Shown here: positions 128 to 33,880 of the stretch, piece by piece | How the letters are laid out: every line of letters starts with the position of its first letter | Numbering within the stretch: the stretch's first letter is position 1 | IMG/VR virus record: IMGVR_UViG_3300035698_021114 | Location: 1 to 57,358 of that record | DNA length: 57,358 nt | Direction: 5' to 3' (one strand) | Origin: a virus | Position numbers and translations under genes: made by a program | Notes under the pieces: model-generated | What the model was told of the DNA's origin: nothing | Seen by the model: only the letters and a program-made list of their open reading frames with translations | Database searches by the model: none

Positions 128-909
128 TCTTTGTTATCTAAGACAAACTTTTTGAATGTTTCATCATCTATCCTTACAAGATCTAAATAATTAGGGGCTC
201 TACATCCTCCACTTGATGATCTTATATGGTATGCTATTGCATGAGTATGGCATCCAATTTTATATCCTTGCTTAATAGCTTCAAGAGACCAGATACTTTC
301 TTCTCTAAATCCCATCTTGCTAAGATTTGTTTTGTACTTAATCTTGATTTTTGATTTGTACATAGCATTAGTTCTGAAATGATGAGTTGGTAATATATCT
401 ACTTCATCATATTTATAGCCTAGATCATCTCCTACATATGTTAAGTTGCCCTCTGGAGTGATATCTATTCTGCTTATAATAGTTCCAACCTTTTCAATTT
501 CTCTGGTTATTGAGGGAGTATCTATGTTAGGAACCACACCTGTTGCAATGTCATATCCAGCATGTAAGGTTTCTTGTAATAAGATTAAATAATCTGGCTC
601 AATAATGCAATCATCATCAAGACGACAAATGAATTCATTGCCATAATCATCTTTCTCAATTAATTTATTTCTAGCAGGAGCAACTCCATTGCTAATTTGA
701 TTTGTTATAACTTTAATTCCATGATTTTCTAAAATCATTCTGCTTATTAACTTCATAAGAAATTCACAATTCAAAACTGGAGCACCAGATGCATCATCTA
801 ATATTAAGATATCAAAATCTTGATATGTTTGAGTCCTCAAGCTTTGTAATAATAAAGCTAATTCTGAATGTCTATCCTTTGTTGTAATGTGTATTGTTGT
901 TCTGTTCAT
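100..909 (-). CDS. Family 2 (GT-A) glycosyltransferase
   Basis: 269 residues. The N-terminus (HITTKDRHSELALLLQSL, then ILDDAS) is the nucleotide-sugar binding start of GT-A glycosyltransferases, and RLDDDC near residue 98 supplies the DXD metal-binding motif. It should transfer a sugar from an activated donor; donor and acceptor cannot be read from the sequence. No signal peptide or membrane segment, so cytosolic. It ends ATG-GTG-AGA-TGA, and that GGTGA is the ribosome site of the Cys-rich gene at position 99 (shown at 57226-57330). It belongs to the sugar module running from 56.1 kb across the circle junction to 6.6 kb. Confidence 0.85.
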   Translation of the reverse strand: MNRTTIHITTKDRHSELALLLQSLRTQTYQDFDILILDDASGAPVLNCEFLMKLISRMILENHGIKVITNQISNGVAPARNKLIEKDDYGNEFICRLDDDCIIEPDYLILLQETLHAGYDIATGVVPNIDTPSITREIEKVGTIISRIDITPEGNLTYVGDDLGYKYDEVDILPTHHFRTNAMYKSKIKIKYKTNLSKMGFREESIWSLEAIKQGYKIGCHTHAIAYHIRSSSGGCRAPNYLDLVRIDDETFKKFVLDNKDEINKHMVR

Positions 910-913
910 CTTC

Positions 914-1192
914 TCACCCTACATAATTAGTATCTGCAGCACTTGTTCTTTCAAAATCTGCATCAAAATAATCTTGTGCCTTCCTTGTTTGTAATAACTT
1001 GACATATTTTTTTTCTGTTTCAGCTGCATCAATCAATGCAAATCTATGCATCTTATCTTGAGGTATAAACATTGTTCCAAAATCACCAGCTATGATAGCA
1101 GAAATTTTTTCTTTTTTTAGAAAGTCAAAAATTCTTTCTATCTTCTCAACATGTTTTTTACTTGAAACATTAATTTTTCGTTTTGTTTTCAT
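914..1192 (-). CDS. Hypothetical protein, 92 aa
   Basis: I do not recognise this protein. It is basic at the N-terminus (MKTKRKINVSSKKHVEKIER) and has no membrane segment. The short predicted beta stretch ISAIIAGDFGTMFI is followed by an acidic, helical C-terminus. Its start overlaps the end of the ClpP-like gene by four bases and a glycosyltransferase follows, so it is co-translated within the sugar/protease operon. Function unknown. Confidence 0.6.
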   Translation of the reverse strand: MKTKRKINVSSKKHVEKIERIFDFLKKEKISAIIAGDFGTMFIPQDKMHRFALIDAAETEKKYVKLLQTRKAQDYFDADFERTSAADTNYVG

Positions 1193-15365: not shown

Positions 15366-15699
15366 TTTTATCTCCTTCTAATTTTTCAATTGCAGTTTCT
15401 AAAGCTTCTTCAAAACAACATCCCCCATTATAATATGAAACAATATAACTAATACTTCCATCCTTATTTAAATTAGCTTCAAAAATGTCATCATCAGAAA
15501 TATCATTTTTCTCTTGTAATTCCCAAAATTGTTTATTAACATAAACTAAATCTTTGGATTCAACATATTCATCTTCAATATCATAATCAATTATGGTATA
15601 TTGACCAACTTTTTTAATCCAAATAATAACTTCTTTAAAAGACATTTCTCCTGTTAAAATTTTTTTTATTTTACCTTTAAATTTTACTGTTTCACTCAT
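15343..15699 (-). CDS. Hypothetical protein, 118 aa
   Basis: Beta-rich start (MSETVKFKGKIKKILTGEMSFKEVIIWI), acidic middle, and an NGGCCFEEALETAIEKL end. Not recognised. Located between the polymerase and thyX with short overlaps on both sides (4 and 23 bases). Confidence 0.6.
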   Translation of the reverse strand: MSETVKFKGKIKKILTGEMSFKEVIIWIKKVGQYTIIDYDIEDEYVESKDLVYVNKQFWELQEKNDISDDDIFEANLNKDGSISYIVSYYNGGCCFEEALETAIEKLEGDKNDKKSKS

Positions 15700-18600
15700 T
15701 TTTTAATCAACCCCAATATTTTTTGTTCAAATGGTTCAAGTGGTAATTTATGTTTTATTTTTTCTCTCAATTCATCTAGATCTATAAGCAAGTCACAATA
15801 TATTTTTGGATATCCTGCTTTAATTCTTCCTTGTATTAATATTGGAGTTCCAAATCCTTTTTCAATAGTCTTTAAATGTTTTTTATACATTTTAGGTTTC
15901 AATTGAATTATAGCATAATCATTGCTTGGATCATCCATATTAAAAAAGCAATATCTTGCACCCATTCCTCTACTTTCTAATTCTTTTTTATTGCCAAAAT
16001 TTGAAATGTCTTCCCCTTCTCGTTTAAAATTAATGTCAAGTACACATCCTGCTAAAAATACTTTTCTATCTGTGGAAAAGTCAAGTGATATTATCTCACT
16101 AATTTTTACAACTTTTTTGCTTCTGTCTAAGATATCATTGTAATAATTAATGATATGTTTTTCAGGTGGAATTGGCAATACTTCAAGTTGTTTCTTAACA
16201 TCCTCTTCTTCATTTCCTGTCTTCATTGACATGCCAAGAGATTCTAAAGCACCAGCTTGATTAAGGTGAGCAACAACTCTTTTATTAACAACTCTTTTGT
16301 AAACTTTATCTTGGAAGTCTTCAAAACTTTTGAATGGTTGTACCTTAATTATTTCATCAGCTGCTTTTTGGCCAACTTGTTTTATTGCAGATAATCCTAC
16401 TACAATTTTACCATCATGAACTGACCATCCATCTTTACTAATATTAATGTCTGGGAATTGTAGTGGAATTCCTCTTGTTCTCATATCCTTAATTACTTCT
16501 TGAATTTTATCATCAAAGTGAGTATTTTTCAATACAGCATAATAAAATTCAGTTGGATAATAATGTTTAAGCCACATACACCAATAACTAATTGCTGAAT
16601 AAGCTGCACTATGAGATTTATTGAAACCATATGAACCAAACTGACAAATTGTATCAAATAAATCCTTAGCAACATCTAAACTAATTCCATTGTCAGAGCA
16701 ACCCTGAAGGAATTCTTGCCTTTGAGTTTCCATTGCTTCAAGCCCTTGTGACTTAGCCATTAACTTTCTAGCAATCTCAGTGTGAGCCCATGGCATGTTC
16801 CCTAATTTATTCATAAGCATCATCACTTGCTCTTGATACAAAATACAACCATGTGTGTCTTGTGTTATTTCAATATAATCTTTAATGTGATTAAATCTCT
16901 CATCTGGTTTTTCCATGCCATGTTTTATTCTAGTATAAAGTGCAGTTGTTCCAGATCGTAAAGCTCCAGGACGATACAATGCATTTGCAGCAACTAACTC
17001 TTCAAAGTTTTCAGGTTGCAGTTGTCTAAGCATTCTTATCATTCCTTTAGTTTCAAATTGAAAAACACCAACTGTATTTCCTAATTGGAATTCTTTATAT
17101 ATTTCTTTATCAGTAAATTCTTTTGGTAATGTTATATATTCTTTTATTTCTTCTAATGCTGTTTTGACAATTGATAAAGTTCTAAGTCCAAGTACATCTA
17201 ATTTCAAAAGACCTAATTTCTCACAATCTTTACCATCATAACATGCAGCTACAACACCACTAATTTTCTCTAATGCTAAGAAATTAACCAATGGTTCTTT
17301 ACCAACTACAACTCCAGCTGCATGGATACCTTTCTGTCTTGTCTGTCCTTCTAATTTCTCTGCATGTTCTATGACTTTAGGATAATTTTTCTTATAAAGT
17401 CTACAGGCTGGGAAAGCATCGAAGCTATCTTGAATTGTGAAGTTAACTCTCTGGTCTCCTCCTGATCTCTGAATAATTAATCCAGAAACTTTATTTGTTT
17501 CCCACATTGGTACATCAAATACTCTAGCACAATCTCTTATTGCTTGTTTTGATTTTAAAGTACCAAATGTTGAAATTGAAGCAACACAATCTTGTCCATA
17601 TTTTTCAATAAGATATTGTTTGACTTCTTTTCGTCTAGCATCTTCAAAATCCATATCAATATCTGGCATGTCTGTTCTTACTTCACTAATGAATCTATCA
17701 AAAAGCAATTTATGCTCTATTGGATCAAGACCTGTAACATCAATCAAATAACAAACTAAAGATCCTGCTACACTTCCTCTTCCAAGACCATACATGATGT
17801 TTTTCTTTTTACAGAATTCATAAATGTCCCAAACTAATAAGATATATTCAACAAATCCTTTCTCAACAAATCGACCCATTTCAAGGATTATTCTTTGTCT
17901 ATAAACTTCTCTTTCTTTTTTAGGTAATTTATCAATTTCTTTTCCTTTCCATCCTTCCTTAACAAGTGAAAATAAAAATTGAGCAGCTTTACCTTTATAT
18001 TGTTTTGGCAAATCAATAGTTGGTAAAACATCTTTTGCTATGTTAGGTTTTGATTTACACATTAGAGCAATTGTATTTGTTTGAGCAAAAGCTTCTCTTA
18101 TAGTTTTTTCTCCAAGCTCAGGAAATCGCTCCATCATTTCTTCATAAGCTTCATCATATGTATGGAACCAAAAATCTCTAGTATCAAATTTAAATCTTCT
18201 TGGGTTGTTCCATTTCTGTTTTGTATTTATTGCCAGTAATACTTCTTGACTTTCTGCATCTTCCTTTTCTATATAATGAGCATCAACTGCAATTGTTAAA
18301 TCAATATCTAAATCAATACCAATTTTTTTCAATACATAATTAACTTTTCTTTGATCTTCAGTATTGAATGTGTGAAGCTCTAAAAAGAATTTATCACCAA
18401 ATACTTTTTTCCACCAATTAGCTTCATTGAGTGCTGCTTGGTATCCTTCTTTAAGATATTCTTGAGCAACTATCCCACCAATACAAGCACTTGTGCAAAT
18501 GATTCCTTCATTGTATTGTAAGAACCATTCTTTTTTCATTATTGGTCTTCTTTTGAAATTCTCAAGACAAGCTTTTGTTGTAAGCTTTAAAATATTTTGA

Positions 18601-18863
18601 TATCCTTTTTGATTTTGTGCTAATAATATAGCATGTCTATATCTACCATCATATTCAACATATACTTCTGTACCAAGAATAGGCTTAATCCCTTCTTTTT
18701 TGCAAAGGTTATAGAATTTAATCCAGCCATACACATTACCATGATCTGTAATTGCTAGTGAATGCATTCCAAGCTTTTTAGCTTTTGCTATTATATCTCC
18801 AAGCTTCCCAAATCCATCTAAGATAGAGAATTCAGTGTGGTGATGTAGGCTGGTATAATTCAT
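15696..18863 (-). CDS. dnaE: DNA polymerase III alpha subunit (C-family, DnaE-like)
   Basis: 1055 residues. The N-terminal PHP domain keeps all nine metal ligands (H7, H9, D16, H41, E66, H77, C127, D194, H196), so proofreading exonuclease activity is likely. The polymerase core has GRGSVAGSL and MPDIDMDFEDARR (two catalytic Asp) and KLDVLGLRTL (third Asp). It continues with a helix-hairpin-helix (IKQVGQKAADEII) and an OB fold near residues 930-1030. No clear clamp-binding motif at the end and no sliding clamp gene seen. C-family polymerases are bacterial; finding one beside a PriS-PriL primase and archaeal promoters is unusual. GGTGACAGCAA precedes the ATG. Confidence 0.95.
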   Translation of the reverse strand: MNYTSLHHHTEFSILDGFGKLGDIIAKAKKLGMHSLAITDHGNVYGWIKFYNLCKKEGIKPILGTEVYVEYDGRYRHAILLAQNQKGYQNILKLTTKACLENFKRRPIMKKEWFLQYNEGIICTSACIGGIVAQEYLKEGYQAALNEANWWKKVFGDKFFLELHTFNTEDQRKVNYVLKKIGIDLDIDLTIAVDAHYIEKEDAESQEVLLAINTKQKWNNPRRFKFDTRDFWFHTYDEAYEEMMERFPELGEKTIREAFAQTNTIALMCKSKPNIAKDVLPTIDLPKQYKGKAAQFLFSLVKEGWKGKEIDKLPKKEREVYRQRIILEMGRFVEKGFVEYILLVWDIYEFCKKKNIMYGLGRGSVAGSLVCYLIDVTGLDPIEHKLLFDRFISEVRTDMPDIDMDFEDARRKEVKQYLIEKYGQDCVASISTFGTLKSKQAIRDCARVFDVPMWETNKVSGLIIQRSGGDQRVNFTIQDSFDAFPACRLYKKNYPKVIEHAEKLEGQTRQKGIHAAGVVVGKEPLVNFLALEKISGVVAACYDGKDCEKLGLLKLDVLGLRTLSIVKTALEEIKEYITLPKEFTDKEIYKEFQLGNTVGVFQFETKGMIRMLRQLQPENFEELVAANALYRPGALRSGTTALYTRIKHGMEKPDERFNHIKDYIEITQDTHGCILYQEQVMMLMNKLGNMPWAHTEIARKLMAKSQGLEAMETQRQEFLQGCSDNGISLDVAKDLFDTICQFGSYGFNKSHSAAYSAISYWCMWLKHYYPTEFYYAVLKNTHFDDKIQEVIKDMRTRGIPLQFPDINISKDGWSVHDGKIVVGLSAIKQVGQKAADEIIKVQPFKSFEDFQDKVYKRVVNKRVVAHLNQAGALESLGMSMKTGNEEEDVKKQLEVLPIPPEKHIINYYNDILDRSKKVVKISEIISLDFSTDRKVFLAGCVLDINFKREGEDISNFGNKKELESRGMGARYCFFNMDDPSNDYAIIQLKPKMYKKHLKTIEKGFGTPILIQGRIKAGYPKIYCDLLIDLDELREKIKHKLPLEPFEQKILGLIKK

Positions 18864-25210: not shown

Positions 25211-25328
25211 TTTGTCTCACAACCATTTTTCTTTAAAAGTGCTTTTCTTAAAATACAGTACTTGTGTTATGCATAAATAACTTTTGCTTTCCACAAGCTT
25301 CTGATATCAATATTAAAAACTGTACATC

Positions 25329-25342
25329 TATATAAACCTTTT
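25329..25342 (-). promoter_or_regulatory. Archaeal BRE/TATA promoter, start of the minus arm
   Basis: Minus strand: AAAAGG then TTTATATA. Predicted start site near 25305, leaving a leader of about 95 bases before the first gene at 25210. Weaker TATA-like sequences lie closer (about 25231-25240). Confidence 0.6.
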
Positions 25343-25398
25343 GTTTTTACAAGTGTTTTCACAAGTGTGAATACAAAGTTGGCTTGTGAAATGCATGT

Positions 25399-25668
25399 GT
25401 TGTAAAGCTGTTTTAAAGCCACTTTAAAAGTCTAGAGATGTAGAATTTAAGCAGTACAGAGGCTATATGGCAGTTGTAAAGTTTTAAAATAAAAGCCTAA
25501 TGTTATTGTGTGTAAGTGTGTATGTGATATATTGGTATTATTATTATATATATATATTATATATATTATTTTATATCTTTAATACATAAGTATAGACTCC
25601 CTCCTCCCCAAATTTTGACAGCTCATGGTTTTAAAGTCTCTTTATAAGTGCTTTACAACCTTTACAAC
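25399..25668. repeat. Iteron-like 9-mers, two in each orientation
   Basis: GTTGTAAAG at 25399-25407 and 25473-25481; reverse complement CTTTACAAC as a tandem pair at 25651-25659 and 25660-25668. Near-matches GTTTTAAAG lie at 25410-25418 and 25628-25636. I did not notice the exact 9-mer elsewhere, but no full search was possible. Confidence 0.6.
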
Positions 25669-25708
25669 CCAGTAGAATACACACAGAGATGTGAAATTAC
25701 TCTAAAAA

Positions 25709-25724
25709 GCGAAAGGTTTAAATA
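25709..25724 (+). promoter_or_regulatory. Archaeal BRE/TATA promoter, start of the plus arm
   Basis: GCGAAAGG then TTTAAATA; centre 26-27 bp before the ATG at 25747. A near-ideal archaeal promoter for a leaderless transcript. Confidence 0.85.
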
Positions 25725-25746
25725 GTTTATGTGCTTAGTTTATTGA

Positions 25747-27182: not shown

Positions 27183-27322
27183 TTGAGAATCATGTGCATT
27201 GTCCAAATTGTAATATGGTAGCTCAAATGGTTGATTCCCACAATTACTTCCCATTGACATTAGTCTGTCCACACTGTAAACATGTATTTTCAGTAGGACA
27301 TGAATTGTCAGGAAATTATTAA
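27176..27322 (+). CDS. Mini zinc-ribbon protein, 48 aa
   Basis: CPNC at 9-12 and CPHC at 34-37 with hydrophobic strands between: a canonical zinc ribbon like those of transcription and translation factors. GGAAGGATT lies upstream. Last gene before the structured RNA locus. Confidence 0.65.
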   Translation: MVVENHVHCPNCNMVAQMVDSHNYFPLTLVCPHCKHVFSVGHELSGNY

Positions 27323-27347
27323 TAGAGAGAGTTAAAGGCACCAATTT

Positions 27348-27474
27348 GCCCCTATGGCCAAGTTTGCTAAGGCACCTGTGAAATTTAAGCAGTGTTCATG
27401 GCATTGCTGCTCAGGAATGATGATTCCACGAGTAATTAAACAGAAAATCGTTGGTTGAAATCCAACTGGGGGCT
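27348..27474 (+). ncRNA. tRNA-like RNA with a branched domain replacing the anticodon arm
   Basis: No gene fits here. Helices: 27348-27354 GCCCCTA with 27467-27473 TGGGGGC (7-bp acceptor-like stem); 27357-27359 GCC with 27371-27373 GGC (D-arm, loop AAGTTTGCTAA); 27450-27454 GTTGG with 27462-27466 CCAAC (T-arm, loop TTGAAAT). The usual elbow pair G19-C56 would be C19-G56 here. In place of an anticodon arm, CTGT+TTAA (27376-27379, 27385-27388) pairs with TTAA+ACAG (27436-27443), enclosing hairpins GCAGTG/CATTGC (loop TTCATGG, 27389-27407) and GGAAT/ATTCC (27414-27427). No U33-type anticodon loop in the expected place and no encoded CCA, so I do not call a working tRNA. Folding was done by eye. 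Confidence 0.5.
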
Positions 27475-27482
27475 GCTTTAAC

Positions 27483-27529
27483 TGTAGGTCAGAAATGACT
27501 GAACAACGAGGTGTCAGTGCACGCCTACA
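27483..27529 (+). ncRNA. Compact structured RNA element
   Basis: TGTAGG (27483-27488) pairs with CCTACA (27524-27529). Inside it lie GTCA-GAAA-TGAC, a GAAA tetraloop hairpin (27488-27499), and CTGA/TCAG (27499-27502 with 27514-27517). It lies between two tRNA-like units and may be part of the same transcript. GCCTACA at 27523-27529 could alternatively pair with TGCAGGC at 27636-27642. Confidence 0.4.
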
Positions 27530-27643
27530 ACTATTAATAATTTGCTTGTTTCCATTTTGATTGAATCAATGGAGGAAGGATATTGCTAGATACCATGGCA
27601 GACTAGGAATATTTAAGTGAGTGTTCAATCCACTCTGCAGGCA
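27523..27643 (+). ncRNA. Second tRNA-like unit with a clear T-arm
   Basis: 27619-27635 is a textbook T-arm (GAGTG, loop TTCAATC, CACTC) followed by TGCAGGC-A, an acceptor 3' strand with discriminator. GCCTACA at 27523-27529 pairs with it at six of seven positions. In between lies a strong hairpin (CCATT-TTGAT...ATCAA-TGG, about 27551-27572) but no normal D or anticodon arm. A run of eight T follows (27646-27653). Possibly a decayed, intron-bearing or purpose-modified tRNA. Confidence 0.4.
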
Positions 27644-27645
27644 CG

Positions 27646-27653
27646 TTTTTTTT
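27646..27653 (+). terminator. T8 terminator of the RNA locus
   Basis: Eight T directly after the tRNA-like unit (CACG-T8-CAGG). Poly-T tracts end transcription in archaea without needing a hairpin. Confidence 0.5.
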
Positions 27654-27655
27654 CA

Positions 27656-27693
27656 GGTCTATAGTGACAACTGGTAGAACACTGCCCTTGCTA
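27656..27693 (+). other. tRNA 5'-half-like sequence
   Basis: GGTCTATAGTGACAACTGG then TAGAACACTGCCCTTGC reads like the 5' half of a tRNA: GTG/CAC D-stem and a TGGTAGAA D-loop. No matching anticodon or T-arm follows before the gene at 27716. It may be a tRNA remnant or half gene. Low confidence. Confidence 0.3.
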
Positions 27694-27715
27694 TTCATCA
27701 AATTGAGGTGCATTC

Positions 27716-28085: not shown

Positions 28086-28195
28086 GTTTAAAGAAAGCAT
28101 TTGAAATGGCAACTAATTATTCAAAAGAATATACTGAGATTAGTGATGAAAAAGTTAAAAAGTGTTGCCCACATTGTGGATGTGAAATAGAATGA
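28082..28195 (+). CDS. Mini zinc-knuckle protein, 37 aa
   Basis: A helix (LKKAFEMATNYSKEYTEI) then KKCCPHCGCEIE, a single cysteine cluster at the C-terminus. Overlaps neighbours by four bases on each side (ATGA type), which supports translation. Function unknown. Confidence 0.6.
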   Translation: MSLKKAFEMATNYSKEYTEISDEKVKKCCPHCGCEIE

Positions 28196-28830
28196 AACCA
28201 ATTGAGATGTTATTCAAGCATTGTGAGTTTGAGAATCCTTACATTGTATATGTGTTATTGGCAGTCAGTAGAAAGAAAGATACTCCTGAGATTACCAATA
28301 CACAAGAGATTGTATTTCGTGAAGTTATTAAGAATGAACGAGATATTGCCAGAAAGTATAATAGACTTAAAGCACAGATCCTTCACTATGAAGATGAGTC
28401 TGGCAAGAAGTTCCCATTTTATCTTTATGTTAGTTTGAATCCTAGAGATAGTTTGAAAGCTACATTCTCACTGATTGGTAGTATCAATCATTGGCTTCAA
28501 GAAGAGATAAGAGGTGTTGATAATTCTAAGATGTTTAAGAAGATATATGGACATTTCTATTCAGCTTTAATGAAGAAGGAATCACGAGCCAAATCACCTA
28601 GATACTTCATGCTTGACTATGATCAGAAGGATAAATTGGATGAATTTGATTTGTTATTGAAAGCATTTGACATTGAGACAGTCATGAGGGTTGAAACTAG
28701 GAATGGATATCACTATAAGGTGAAACCTTATGATAGGAGTGCATTTCCAGATCCTAAGAACAAAGATAATTTTAATTTTGAGAGTAAGATAGATGCAAAC
28801 TTGTTTGTGGAGTATTTTAAGAATGAATAA
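28192..28830 (+). CDS. Possible mini archaeo-eukaryotic primase-like protein, 212 aa
   Basis: RYFMLDYDQKDK supplies a hhhDXD strand and VMRVETRNGYHYKVKPYD an S/T-X-H-like strand, in the order and spacing of motifs I and II of archaeo-eukaryotic primases. Upstream, PFYLYVSLNPRDSLKATF is conserved-looking. Similar phage hypotheticals exist from memory, but a polymerase activity is not established. Starts with an ATGA overlap. A second primase-like gene, in the other arm from the PriS-PriL fusion. Confidence 0.5.
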   Translation: MKPIEMLFKHCEFENPYIVYVLLAVSRKKDTPEITNTQEIVFREVIKNERDIARKYNRLKAQILHYEDESGKKFPFYLYVSLNPRDSLKATFSLIGSINHWLQEEIRGVDNSKMFKKIYGHFYSALMKKESRAKSPRYFMLDYDQKDKLDEFDLLLKAFDIETVMRVETRNGYHYKVKPYDRSAFPDPKNKDNFNFESKIDANLFVEYFKNE

Positions 28831-30118: not shown

Positions 30119-30460
30119 ATGGAGATCCCAAAAAATATAGAACAGATTATGGTGAAATTGCTTACTAATAAATTTGAAGCTTATGTTATAGGGGGTGCTG
30201 TCAGAGATTTCTTTTTAGGGTTAGAACCTAATGATTATGATATTTTCACCAATGCTAGTGGCAGACAAATTCTTAAACTTTTCCCAGAAGGAAAGGTTGT
30301 TGGTGGAGAAGAAAGACAAAAGAAGATATTGACTGTATTGGTTGAAGGAGTTGAAGGAACTGCTTTCATGAAGCCAGTTGCTGTTCTTAAGATAGGTAAA
30401 CAGGCTGCTAAATTTTTTGAGAAGTTTTTTGGTAAAGGAGAAAAGGCGGTGATTGGATGA
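30119..30460 (+). CDS. Truncated tRNA nucleotidyltransferase / poly(A) polymerase head domain
   Basis: 113 residues. AYVIGGAVRDFFLG at 21-34 and NDYDIFTNA with D39 and D41 are the head-domain motifs of class II CCA-adding enzymes and bacterial poly(A) polymerases. The neck and body domains that bind tRNA (normally another 250 or more residues) are missing, and cellular archaea use class I enzymes, so this is of bacterial type. It has its own promoter. It might act on the tRNA-like RNA 2.7 kb upstream, which lacks an encoded CCA (inference). Confidence 0.8.
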   Translation: MEIPKNIEQIMVKLLTNKFEAYVIGGAVRDFFLGLEPNDYDIFTNASGRQILKLFPEGKVVGGEERQKKILTVLVEGVEGTAFMKPVAVLKIGKQAAKFFEKFFGKGEKAVIG

Positions 30461-32390: not shown

Positions 32391-32403
32391 TTTGTGTAGA
32401 GAC

Positions 32404-33204
32404 ATGGAGATTACAGAAGAGGAACTAAGAGATCCAGTGTTATTCCAAGTTGGATTTTTAAACACTGTGCCTTTTGGGAAGCAAGTTGAAGTATTGAGGA
32501 GCAAAGCAAAACATAAAGTGCTATGCTGTGGAAGAAGAGGTGGCAAGACTAGGTTGGTTGCTGGTGAAATAATTAGAGGTAGCTTTTTCTCAATCTATAA
32601 AAAACAATTAGTGGTTTGTCCTGTTTATCGGAATATCAAACCTATCTTTAATCAGATTGAAGCTTATTTGCAAGAGTCTGGAATCATTAATGACATAGTT
32701 AAGATAAGAAGATCATCACCACAATTTATTCAATTTAAAAATGGTTGTATAATAGACTTTGGATCTGTAGATAAGCCACATTCTTTAAGAGGAGATACAT
32801 ATGACAGGATCTTTAAGGATGAATCTGGCTTTATTAAGCGAGAGGCTGACTTAGTATTAAGACCGATGTTGTTTGATACAGATGCAGACCTTTGGGACAC
32901 TAGCACCCCATGGAGTAAAGATACTACTTTCTATGAGAATTATGAGAAAGGATTAAAAGGACATGACAGAATTAAAAGTTTCCACTGGACATCAAGAGAC
33001 AACCCACACTTGAGACAGGAGATGATTGATTCTGAGATTAAGGATTATGGAGAGAACAGTTTCTATGTACAAGCAGAAATCTTAGGGAATTTTATTGATG
33101 ATGTAGATAGTTATTTTAAGCAAGCACTGATCAGGTCTTGTGTAGATGAAGATGAGGATTATAAAGTAATGGATGAAGACTTTTTATTGGCAATGTGTGT
33201 ATGA
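32404..33204 (+). CDS. Terminase large subunit, ATPase part
   Basis: 266 residues. Walker A CCGRRGGKT, the adenine-side region KQVEVLRSKAKHK and Walker B DRIFKDES identify the packaging motor ATPase; LWDTSTPWSKDTTFYENYEKG follows as the coupling motif. The frame ends at TGA 33202-33204, just before the nuclease half, which continues in the next frame. See the split described at 33188-33284. It pumps viral DNA into proheads through the portal. Confidence 0.9.
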   Translation: MEITEEELRDPVLFQVGFLNTVPFGKQVEVLRSKAKHKVLCCGRRGGKTRLVAGEIIRGSFFSIYKKQLVVCPVYRNIKPIFNQIEAYLQESGIINDIVKIRRSSPQFIQFKNGCIIDFGSVDKPHSLRGDTYDRIFKDESGFIKREADLVLRPMLFDTDADLWDTSTPWSKDTTFYENYEKGLKGHDRIKSFHWTSRDNPHLRQEMIDSEIKDYGENSFYVQAEILGNFIDDVDSYFKQALIRSCVDEDEDYKVMDEDFLLAMCV

Positions 33205-33284
33205 GAAAGGATAGGAATTTTCCCCTGTGTCTCCACCCCTACAGTTCTTAACAGGTTTTTTTCCTGTCCCTCAAACTATGGCAA
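33188..33284 (+). other. Segment splitting the terminase gene
   Basis: TGGCAA occurs at 33188-33193 and 33279-33284, 91 bases apart. Removing one unit joins GCA to GCA and fuses the ATPase and nuclease halves in one frame. The segment is C-rich compared with its surroundings (CCCCTG, CCACCCC) and holds a hairpin ACAGG-T7-CCTGT. Candidate explanations are an intron, ribosome bypassing, an insertion, or two separate proteins. Confidence 0.5.
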
Positions 33285-33880
33285 ACAAACCAAGCGGAGT
33301 AATCCACCCAAAAGCAACATACATTTTGGGAGTGGATCTGGCAAGATTAGGTCAGGATAGTAGTGTGTTCTTAGTACTTGAAAAACCATTTGACAGTGAT
33401 GAGATATATGTTGTTTTTATTAAAGAAATGGAAACAAATCTTATGAATGAAGCTGTTAACTATATCAAATTCTTAGATAAGAGATTTCATTTCACTAAAA
33501 TATATATGGATACAACAGGACTTGGTTCTGGACCATATGATTTCTTAATAGTTGATCAATCATTCAAGTATAGAACTGAAGATTGTACATTCAACAAATC
33601 ATTAGATGGTAAGCCTTTGAAAGAAATTGCTTACACCAATATGAAAATGTTACTTGAAAGGAAAAGCAGAGGAGTCAAAGGGGGATTGCATTTGCCAGAC
33701 AATAAAAAACTTCTTTATCAATTGATAGATCTGAGATATGAACTCAAGACTAATGGTGGGTTAAAGATACATCATAGTGAACGGGGTCATGATGATTATC
33801 CAGATGCATTAGCAATAGCTTGTCTATATTTTAGACCAACAAACCAAGTGGATATGTCAGGATCTTTTGCAATAGGTTAA
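33227..33880 (+). CDS. Terminase large subunit, nuclease part
   Basis: 217 residues from a GTG at 33227 (AGGATAGG upstream); an ATG at 33278 is an alternative. YILGVDLARLGQDSSVF is the first acidic strand of the RNase H-like nuclease; IYMDTTGLG holds the second Asp and HDDYPDALAIA the last acidic motif. It cuts concatemers during packaging. If made separately it must assemble with the ATPase part; otherwise it is the C-terminal half of a spliced or recoded protein. Confidence 0.85.
   Translation: MSPPLQFLTGFFPVPQTMANKPSGVIHPKATYILGVDLARLGQDSSVFLVLEKPFDSDEIYVVFIKEMETNLMNEAVNYIKFLDKRFHFTKIYMDTTGLGSGPYDFLIVDQSFKYRTEDCTFNKSLDGKPLKEIAYTNMKMLLERKSRGVKGGLHLPDNKKLLYQLIDLRYELKTNGGLKIHHSERGHDDYPDALAIACLYFRPTNQVDMSGSFAIG

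What the first reader, a model, noticed from the sequence alone, without database searches (positions are those of the whole stretch)
27348..27653. tRNA-like RNA locus with a branched domain in place of the anticodon arm
In a genome with almost no spacer, about 390 bases (27323-27715) hold no gene but fold into tRNA-like parts: a 7-bp acceptor-like stem, D-arm and T-arm with a swapped C19-G56 elbow pair, then a bulged helix carrying two hairpins (one with the 7-base loop TTCATGG) where the anticodon arm should be. A second unit ends in a perfect T-arm plus acceptor strand and T8. This could be a tRNA mimic, an intron-bearing or split tRNA (known in Nanoarchaeota), or a new viral RNA.
Basis: partly seen in the sequence, partly recalled or inferred. 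Interest (0 to 1): 0.8.

Follow-up and report, generated by a model that had tools for sequence, protein, structure and literature searches.

The report
Archaeal-virus tRNA-like RNA, remodelled anticodon arm
A virus of tiny archaea carries, in a rare gene-free gap, an RNA with a nearly textbook transfer-RNA body in which a 60-base branched piece replaces the part that reads the genetic code; it is probably not an ordinary tRNA or a normally spliced one, and what it does is unknown.

Summary
It has a 7-bp acceptor, T8, D-arm, G15-C48, a 5-nt variable loop and a T-arm. CTGT/ACAG and AATT/AATT helices carrying two hairpins replace the anticodon loop. Unit 2 keeps a perfect T-arm, an acceptor 3' strand and T8, but its 5' part is weak. 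No homolog was found, so covariation within the locus could not be tested. The elbow was checked another way: 55 of 55 virus/host tRNAs with T55C56 have GG in the D-loop, all 7 analysable variants have the complementary dinucleotide, and unit 1 (GC/TG) fits. The host is archaeal: a relative's tRNA-Met has a perfect bulge-helix-bulge (BHB) intron, another relative sits in a Pacearchaeota MAG, and BRE/TATA promoters are present. The intron reading was tested: all 11 host introns and the viral one resolve as BHB, but no BHB excision turns unit 1 or 2 into a tRNA. Relatives also carry tRNAs with an intact acceptor/T half and a missing or enlarged anticodon region. Best reading: a non-decoding, tRNA-shaped viral RNA (scaffold or decoy), function inferred. 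Main rivals: decaying tRNA genes, or a Met(CAT) tRNA matured by an unknown route.

The parts
27311..27324 (+). BRE/TATA-like element GGAAA-TTATTAATA, about 28 nt upstream of unit 1
   Evidence: sequence; inferred, weaker than the clear BRE/TATA sites at 25710 and 30078
27331..27337 (+). 5' strand of an outer 7-bp helix GTTAAAG, partner CTTTAAC 27476-27482
   Evidence: sequence; partly predicted
27348..27354 (+). unit 1 acceptor 5' strand GCCCCTA
   Evidence: pairing probability 0.75-0.92
27357..27373 (+). unit 1 D-arm, stem GCC/GGC, with G18-C19 read at 27366-27367
27376..27379 (+). CTGT, pairs with ACAG 27440-27443; base of the remodelled anticodon arm
   Evidence: probability about 0.8
27382..27385 (+). 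AATT, pairs with AATT 27434-27437 across a GA/AA internal loop
   Evidence: probability about 0.4-0.6
27388..27408 (+). hairpin 1 AGCAGTG-TTCATGG-CATTGCT; its 7-nt loop looks like a CAT anticodon loop with T33 and G37
   Evidence: 0.24% of shuffled inserts have such a CAT hairpin
27409..27433 (+). hairpin 2 (GCTC-A-GGAAT-GATG-ATTCC-AC-GAGT)
27445..27449 (+). 5-nt variable region AAATC ending in C48
   Evidence: sequence
27450..27466 (+). unit 1 T-arm GTTGG TTGAAAT CCAAC (G56)
27467..27474 (+). unit 1 acceptor 3' strand TGGGGGC and discriminator T
27544..27618 (+). unit 2 body: weak 5' acceptor GCTTGTT, hairpin CCATT..AATGG, long hairpin GATATTgCTAG..CTAGgAATATT
   Evidence: RNAfold only; no D-arm signature
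27619..27643 (+). unit 2 T-arm GAGTG TTCAATC CACTC, acceptor 3' strand TGCAGGC, A73
27646..27653 (+). T8, probable archaeal U-tract terminator
   Evidence: sequence; function inferred
27655..27699 (+). possible third tRNA-like 5' half (AGGTCTA, TA, D-arm-like GTG..CAC) without a 3' half
   Evidence: shares AGGTCTATAGTGA with a viral tRNA-Arg in L173; tentative

Best explanation
The locus is a small non-coding transcription unit of a head-tailed virus of DPANN archaea. Its first unit is a tRNA-shaped RNA that no longer decodes. The acceptor, D-arm, T-arm and elbow are intact, so tRNA-maturation enzymes should be able to recognise it: RNase P at 27348, a 3' endonuclease after 27474, and CCA addition. 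That would give a stable RNA of about 127 nt. A bulged helix carrying two hairpins replaces the anticodon loop, so the RNA cannot enter the ribosome as a normal tRNA. It most likely works as a tRNA-shaped scaffold, or as a decoy for a tRNA-binding or tRNA-cutting protein of the host. Shown here: the anatomy, the lineage-type elbow pair, the archaeal context, and the absence of a BHB intron. Inferred: expression, processing, and the decoy or scaffold role.
For: Unit 1 is the best tRNA-body match in the window and is rarely or never matched in 1500 shuffled windows (0 of 1500 with elbow variants allowed, 18 of 1500 without). The unconstrained fold gives the tRNA form. The G18C19/T55G56 elbow obeys the compensation rule of related virus and host tRNAs: 55/55 GG with TC; A18G19 with G55C56 four times; G18T19 with T55A56 three times. 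No BHB excision yields a tRNA, while all positive controls do. Relatives carry several tRNAs with an intact acceptor/T half and a damaged, missing or enlarged anticodon region, not resolved as BHB-spliced tRNAs: L090 (54 nt), L091, L195 and two tandem units in L088. G+C is 0.41 against 0.32 for the genome, and a T8 follows directly.
Against: No homolog was found, so covariation in the stems is untested. Fold energy is not exceptional (z -1.5). Unit 2 is only a convincing 3' half and the third unit only a possible 5' half, which also fits decay of a tRNA array. There is no expression data. The promoter-like element is imperfect. The decoy or scaffold role has no direct support.
Confidence: 0.45

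Rival explanations
1. Decaying tRNA genes. The locus is what is left of a viral tRNA array: unit 1 has suffered an insertion, unit 2 has lost its 5' half and unit 3 its 3' half.
For: A relative, L130/L173, carries a large tRNA array. Unit 2 and unit 3 look like half genes. The unit 1 acceptor and 5' flank share 16 nt with a viral tRNA-Glu in L173 (E 0.29, so not significant by itself). This virus has no intact tRNA.
Against: Drift should erode the unit 1 core, yet every core stem is fully paired and the elbow change is compensatory. The two inserted strands are complementary to each other. Several relatives keep tRNAs with altered anticodon regions and intact cores.
Confidence: 0.27
2. A decoding tRNA with a CAT anticodon (Met type) in the making. 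Hairpin 1 is its true anticodon arm, and the two complementary inserts at about 27375-27389 and 27407-27444 are removed by an unknown, non-BHB route.
For: Loop TTCATGG has T33, CAT and G37, as in the CAT tRNAs of the same virus group and host (TTCATGC in L052 after splicing, CTCATGC in L122 and L087, CTCATGA in L174 and L171). Only 0.24% of shuffled inserts hold such a hairpin. Joining the core to this arm gives a sequence that ARAGORN calls tRNA-Met.
Against: No BHB at either junction. Removing both strands of a helix would need four cuts and two joins, which the known EndA/RtcB pathway does not do.
Confidence: 0.18
3. An integration site (attP) carrying tRNA 3' ends.
For: Unit 2 is a perfect tRNA 3' end without a matching 5' half.
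Against: No tyrosine integrase in this or four related records; no matching tRNA end in 371 genomes of the host phylum; unit 1 also has its 5' half.
Confidence: 0.03
4. Chance resemblance in a gene-free, G+C-richer stretch.
For: Fold energy z-scores are modest; with strictly canonical scoring about 1% of shuffled windows match unit 1.
Against: Two T-arm/acceptor ends lie 170 nt apart and are the only ones in 57 kb; elbow rule met; best and third-best covariance-model hits in the window are the two halves of unit 1.
Confidence: 0.05

Closest known systems
Archaeal pre-tRNA with a bulge-helix-bulge intron (as in Pacearchaeota and in the related virus locus L052)
   Same: tRNA body with extra sequence in the anticodon region; the same virus group and host use such introns
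   Different: no BHB motif, no T33 at the stem junction, insert branched and about 60 nt
Virus-encoded tRNAs that evade tRNA-cutting defences (PMC11555353, which also cites anticodon-loop mutants of mycobacteriophage tRNAs)
   Same: viral tRNA-shaped RNA altered in the anticodon region
   Different: those remain decoding tRNAs with 7-nt loops (own knowledge for the loop length)
TMER RNAs of murine gammaherpesvirus 68 (PMC8223928)
   Same: viral RNA joining a tRNA-like structure and hairpins
   Different: TMER hairpins lie 3' of the tRNA-like part; eukaryotic virus; no homology tested or claimed
tmRNA
   Same: tRNA-like acceptor/T domain with a larger domain instead of the anticodon arm
   Different: no Rfam tmRNA match, no tag reading frame or pseudoknots seen, complete D-arm present; archaea are not known to have tmRNA (own knowledge)

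Membership tests
canonical elongator tRNA | 7-bp acceptor, D-arm, T-arm, T8-A14, 15-48 and 18/19-55/56 contacts | tested here: met
   (elbow in the C19-G56 variant)
canonical elongator tRNA | 5-bp anticodon stem closing a 7-nt loop with T33, attached directly to the core | tested here: not met
   the loop is replaced by a branched 60-nt domain
intron-bearing archaeal tRNA | BHB motif whose excision gives a tRNA | tested here: not met
   12 of 12 positive controls resolved
split or trans-spliced tRNA | two half genes with complementary ends and a BHB at the junction | tested here: not met
   unit 1 halves are in cis; no convincing 5' half for unit 2 in the window
tmRNA | match to Rfam tmRNA models | tested here: not met
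   ARAGORN finds no tmRNA
any Rfam family | score over the gathering threshold | tested here: not met
tRNA-like viral RNA (functional class) | processing by RNase P and a 3' endonuclease, CCA addition | not testable with these tools
   needs RNA from infected cells or in-vitro assays
structured RNA family | covariation across homologs | tested here: inconclusive
   no homologs found; only the elbow pair could be judged against other tRNAs

The most novel reading that the evidence does not exclude
A viral tRNA whose CAT anticodon arm sits on an inserted helical spacer and is brought into place by a splicing route other than bulge-helix-bulge, or a new class of archaeal-virus tRNA mimics that keep the acceptor/T half and remodel the anticodon half.
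Probability: 0.3. Interest if true: 0.75.

Novelty: new variant of a known kind. Interest (0 to 1): 0.52.

Why it matters
Viruses of DPANN archaea are little studied. A viral RNA with a fully kept tRNA body and a remodelled anticodon domain would point to tRNA mimicry or counter-defence in archaea, or to a maturation route beyond the standard intron motif. Several related viruses show altered tRNAs of the same general sort, so the idea can be tested in metatranscriptomes.

Tried and rejected
Intron reading: rejected after BHB enumeration in strict, relaxed and sequential modes, with 12 positive controls. attP reading: no integrase, no host match. Known RNA family: none. Homolog searches by DNA, D-arm pattern, T-arm pattern and neighbouring proteins found no relative of the locus; five of the six one search hits lie in open reading frames by translation and the sixth, L180, looks like coding sequence by eye; the pattern hit (L225) was not examined. 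A C/D-box sRNA in hairpin 2 (ATGATGA plus a distant CTGA; weak SNORD52 match) was considered and not pursued. A covariance model cannot score long inserts well: it gives the true intron tRNA L052 only 12 bits. My descriptor was written after seeing the locus, so the strictly canonical score (18 of 1500) is reported beside the permissive one.

Full report
Setting. The window is an IMG/VR virus record of 57,358 bases with a large terminase, portal, major capsid protein and a family C DNA polymerase. The best capsid-gene relatives reach 79% identity in viral contigs, and one relative (63%) lies in a Candidatus Pacearchaeota MAG. BRE/TATA promoters such as CGAAAGGTTTAAATA (25710) and CGAAACATTTAAATA (30078) are present. 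A capsid relative (L052) has a tRNA-Met with the textbook archaeal intron CTGGA|TTCA[TGT]GTTAGTAT~ATATTAAC|TGAA[AAC]TCCAG. The tRNA array near the end of a 27,810-base contig, the same length as the contig of the Pacearchaeota capsid relative and so taken to be it, holds an archaeal RNase P RNA (95 bits). The host is therefore an archaeon, most likely DPANN; this is inference from relatives.

Observation. Unit 1 (27348-27474) has the full tertiary signature of a tRNA body: 7/7 acceptor pairs, T8 and A14, a D-stem, G15 and C48, a 5-nt variable region, and a 5-bp T-stem with a 7-nt loop. The minimum-energy fold shows it without constraint, though the energy is only 1.5 standard deviations below shuffles. 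In a descriptor scan it is the best hit of the window: 0 of 1500 two-strand shuffled windows reach it when an alternative elbow is allowed, 18 of 1500 when it is not. A covariance model from nine virus and host tRNAs ranks its two halves first and third in the window. Unit 2 (27619-27643) is a perfect T-arm and acceptor 3' strand followed by T8; its 5' part is weak. A possible third 5' half lies at 27655-27699.

Elbow. Among 64 tRNAs of the host MAG and the viruses, with unit 1 counted in, all 55 with T55C56 have GG in the D-loop. The four with G55C56 have AG, the three with T55A56 have GT, and unit 1 with T55G56 has GC; one further tRNA was misparsed and left out. AG and GT also occur by chance in many D-loops, so each case alone is weak; the loss of GG together with the matching dinucleotide is what counts. 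This supports the swapped pair and selection for the folded elbow.

Not an ordinary spliced tRNA. With one rule (4-bp helix, two 3-nt bulges, outer stem of at least 3 bp) all 11 intron tRNAs of the host MAG and the viral L052 are recovered and called as tRNAs after excision, while unit 1, unit 2 and the odd tRNAs L090, L091, L195, L176 and L088 unit A give none; L088 unit B gives one implausible two-step product. The anticodon-side stem CCTGT/ACAGA is not followed by T33, and the few single deletions that ARAGORN accepts lack a BHB.

The CAT hairpin. Hairpin 1 has the loop TTCATGG. CAT tRNAs of this virus group and host share CAT followed by G37. Only 0.24% of shuffled inserts contain such a hairpin. 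Joining the core to this arm gives a sequence that ARAGORN calls tRNA-Met. The arm is held away from the core by two complementary strands, which no known archaeal splicing step would remove together. This keeps the unusual-maturation rival alive.

Pattern in relatives. Canonical tRNAs are common in the group, but L090 has lost the D and anticodon arms (54 nt, 33.5 bits), L091 and L195 have enlarged anticodon loops, and L088 has two tandem units with an intact acceptor/T half only. Acceptor/T halves are kept while the anticodon half varies. Near the window locus lie a truncated CCA-adding-type nucleotidyltransferase (30119-30460) and a 212-aa protein whose homolog in L002 sits beside an RNA ligase and a CCA-adding enzyme, so RNA repair may be part of the context; this is suggestive only.

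Verdict. Best reading: a non-decoding, tRNA-shaped viral RNA, function inferred (0.45). Rivals: decaying tRNA genes (0.27), a CAT tRNA matured by an unknown route (0.18), chance (0.05), attP (0.03). No homolog of the locus was found, so stem covariation remains untested.

Noticed in passing
L173 358-581 (minus strand; G023:C14): Archaeal RNase P RNA (RF00373, 95 bits) inside a large tRNA array, apparently on the same contig as a capsid-gene relative of the window (matching contig length 27,810), i.e. apparently virus-encoded.
   Followed up: partly
L131-L179 and viral tRNAs: tRNA elbow compensation in this lineage: A18G19 with G55C56 and G18T19 with T55A56.
   Followed up: partly
L088 (G012), L090 (G011), L091 (G005), L195: tRNA-like genes with an intact acceptor/T half and an enlarged or missing anticodon region in related viruses.
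   Followed up: partly
32392-33880: Large terminase split over two reading frames with a short interruption near 33190-33290; possible intron or frameshift.
   Followed up: no
30119-30460: Truncated class II CCA-adding-type nucleotidyltransferase head domain; in L002 the full enzyme is interrupted by an HNH-like reading frame (L002 4948-5451; HNH assignment by eye).
   Followed up: partly
28192-28830: 212-aa protein of unknown family phrog_14949; its homolog in L002 is next to an RNA ligase and a CCA-adding enzyme.
   Followed up: partly
15696-18863: Family C (DnaE-type) DNA polymerase in a virus whose host appears to be an archaeon.
   Followed up: no
25237-25746: A second gene-free, AT-rich stretch at the divergent switch of gene direction and GC skew, with a clear BRE/TATA site at 25710.
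   Followed up: no
L173, between the tRNA-Leu and tRNA-Asn genes (887-954, minus strand): Viral tRNA-Cys-like gene with a reduced D-arm.
   Followed up: no
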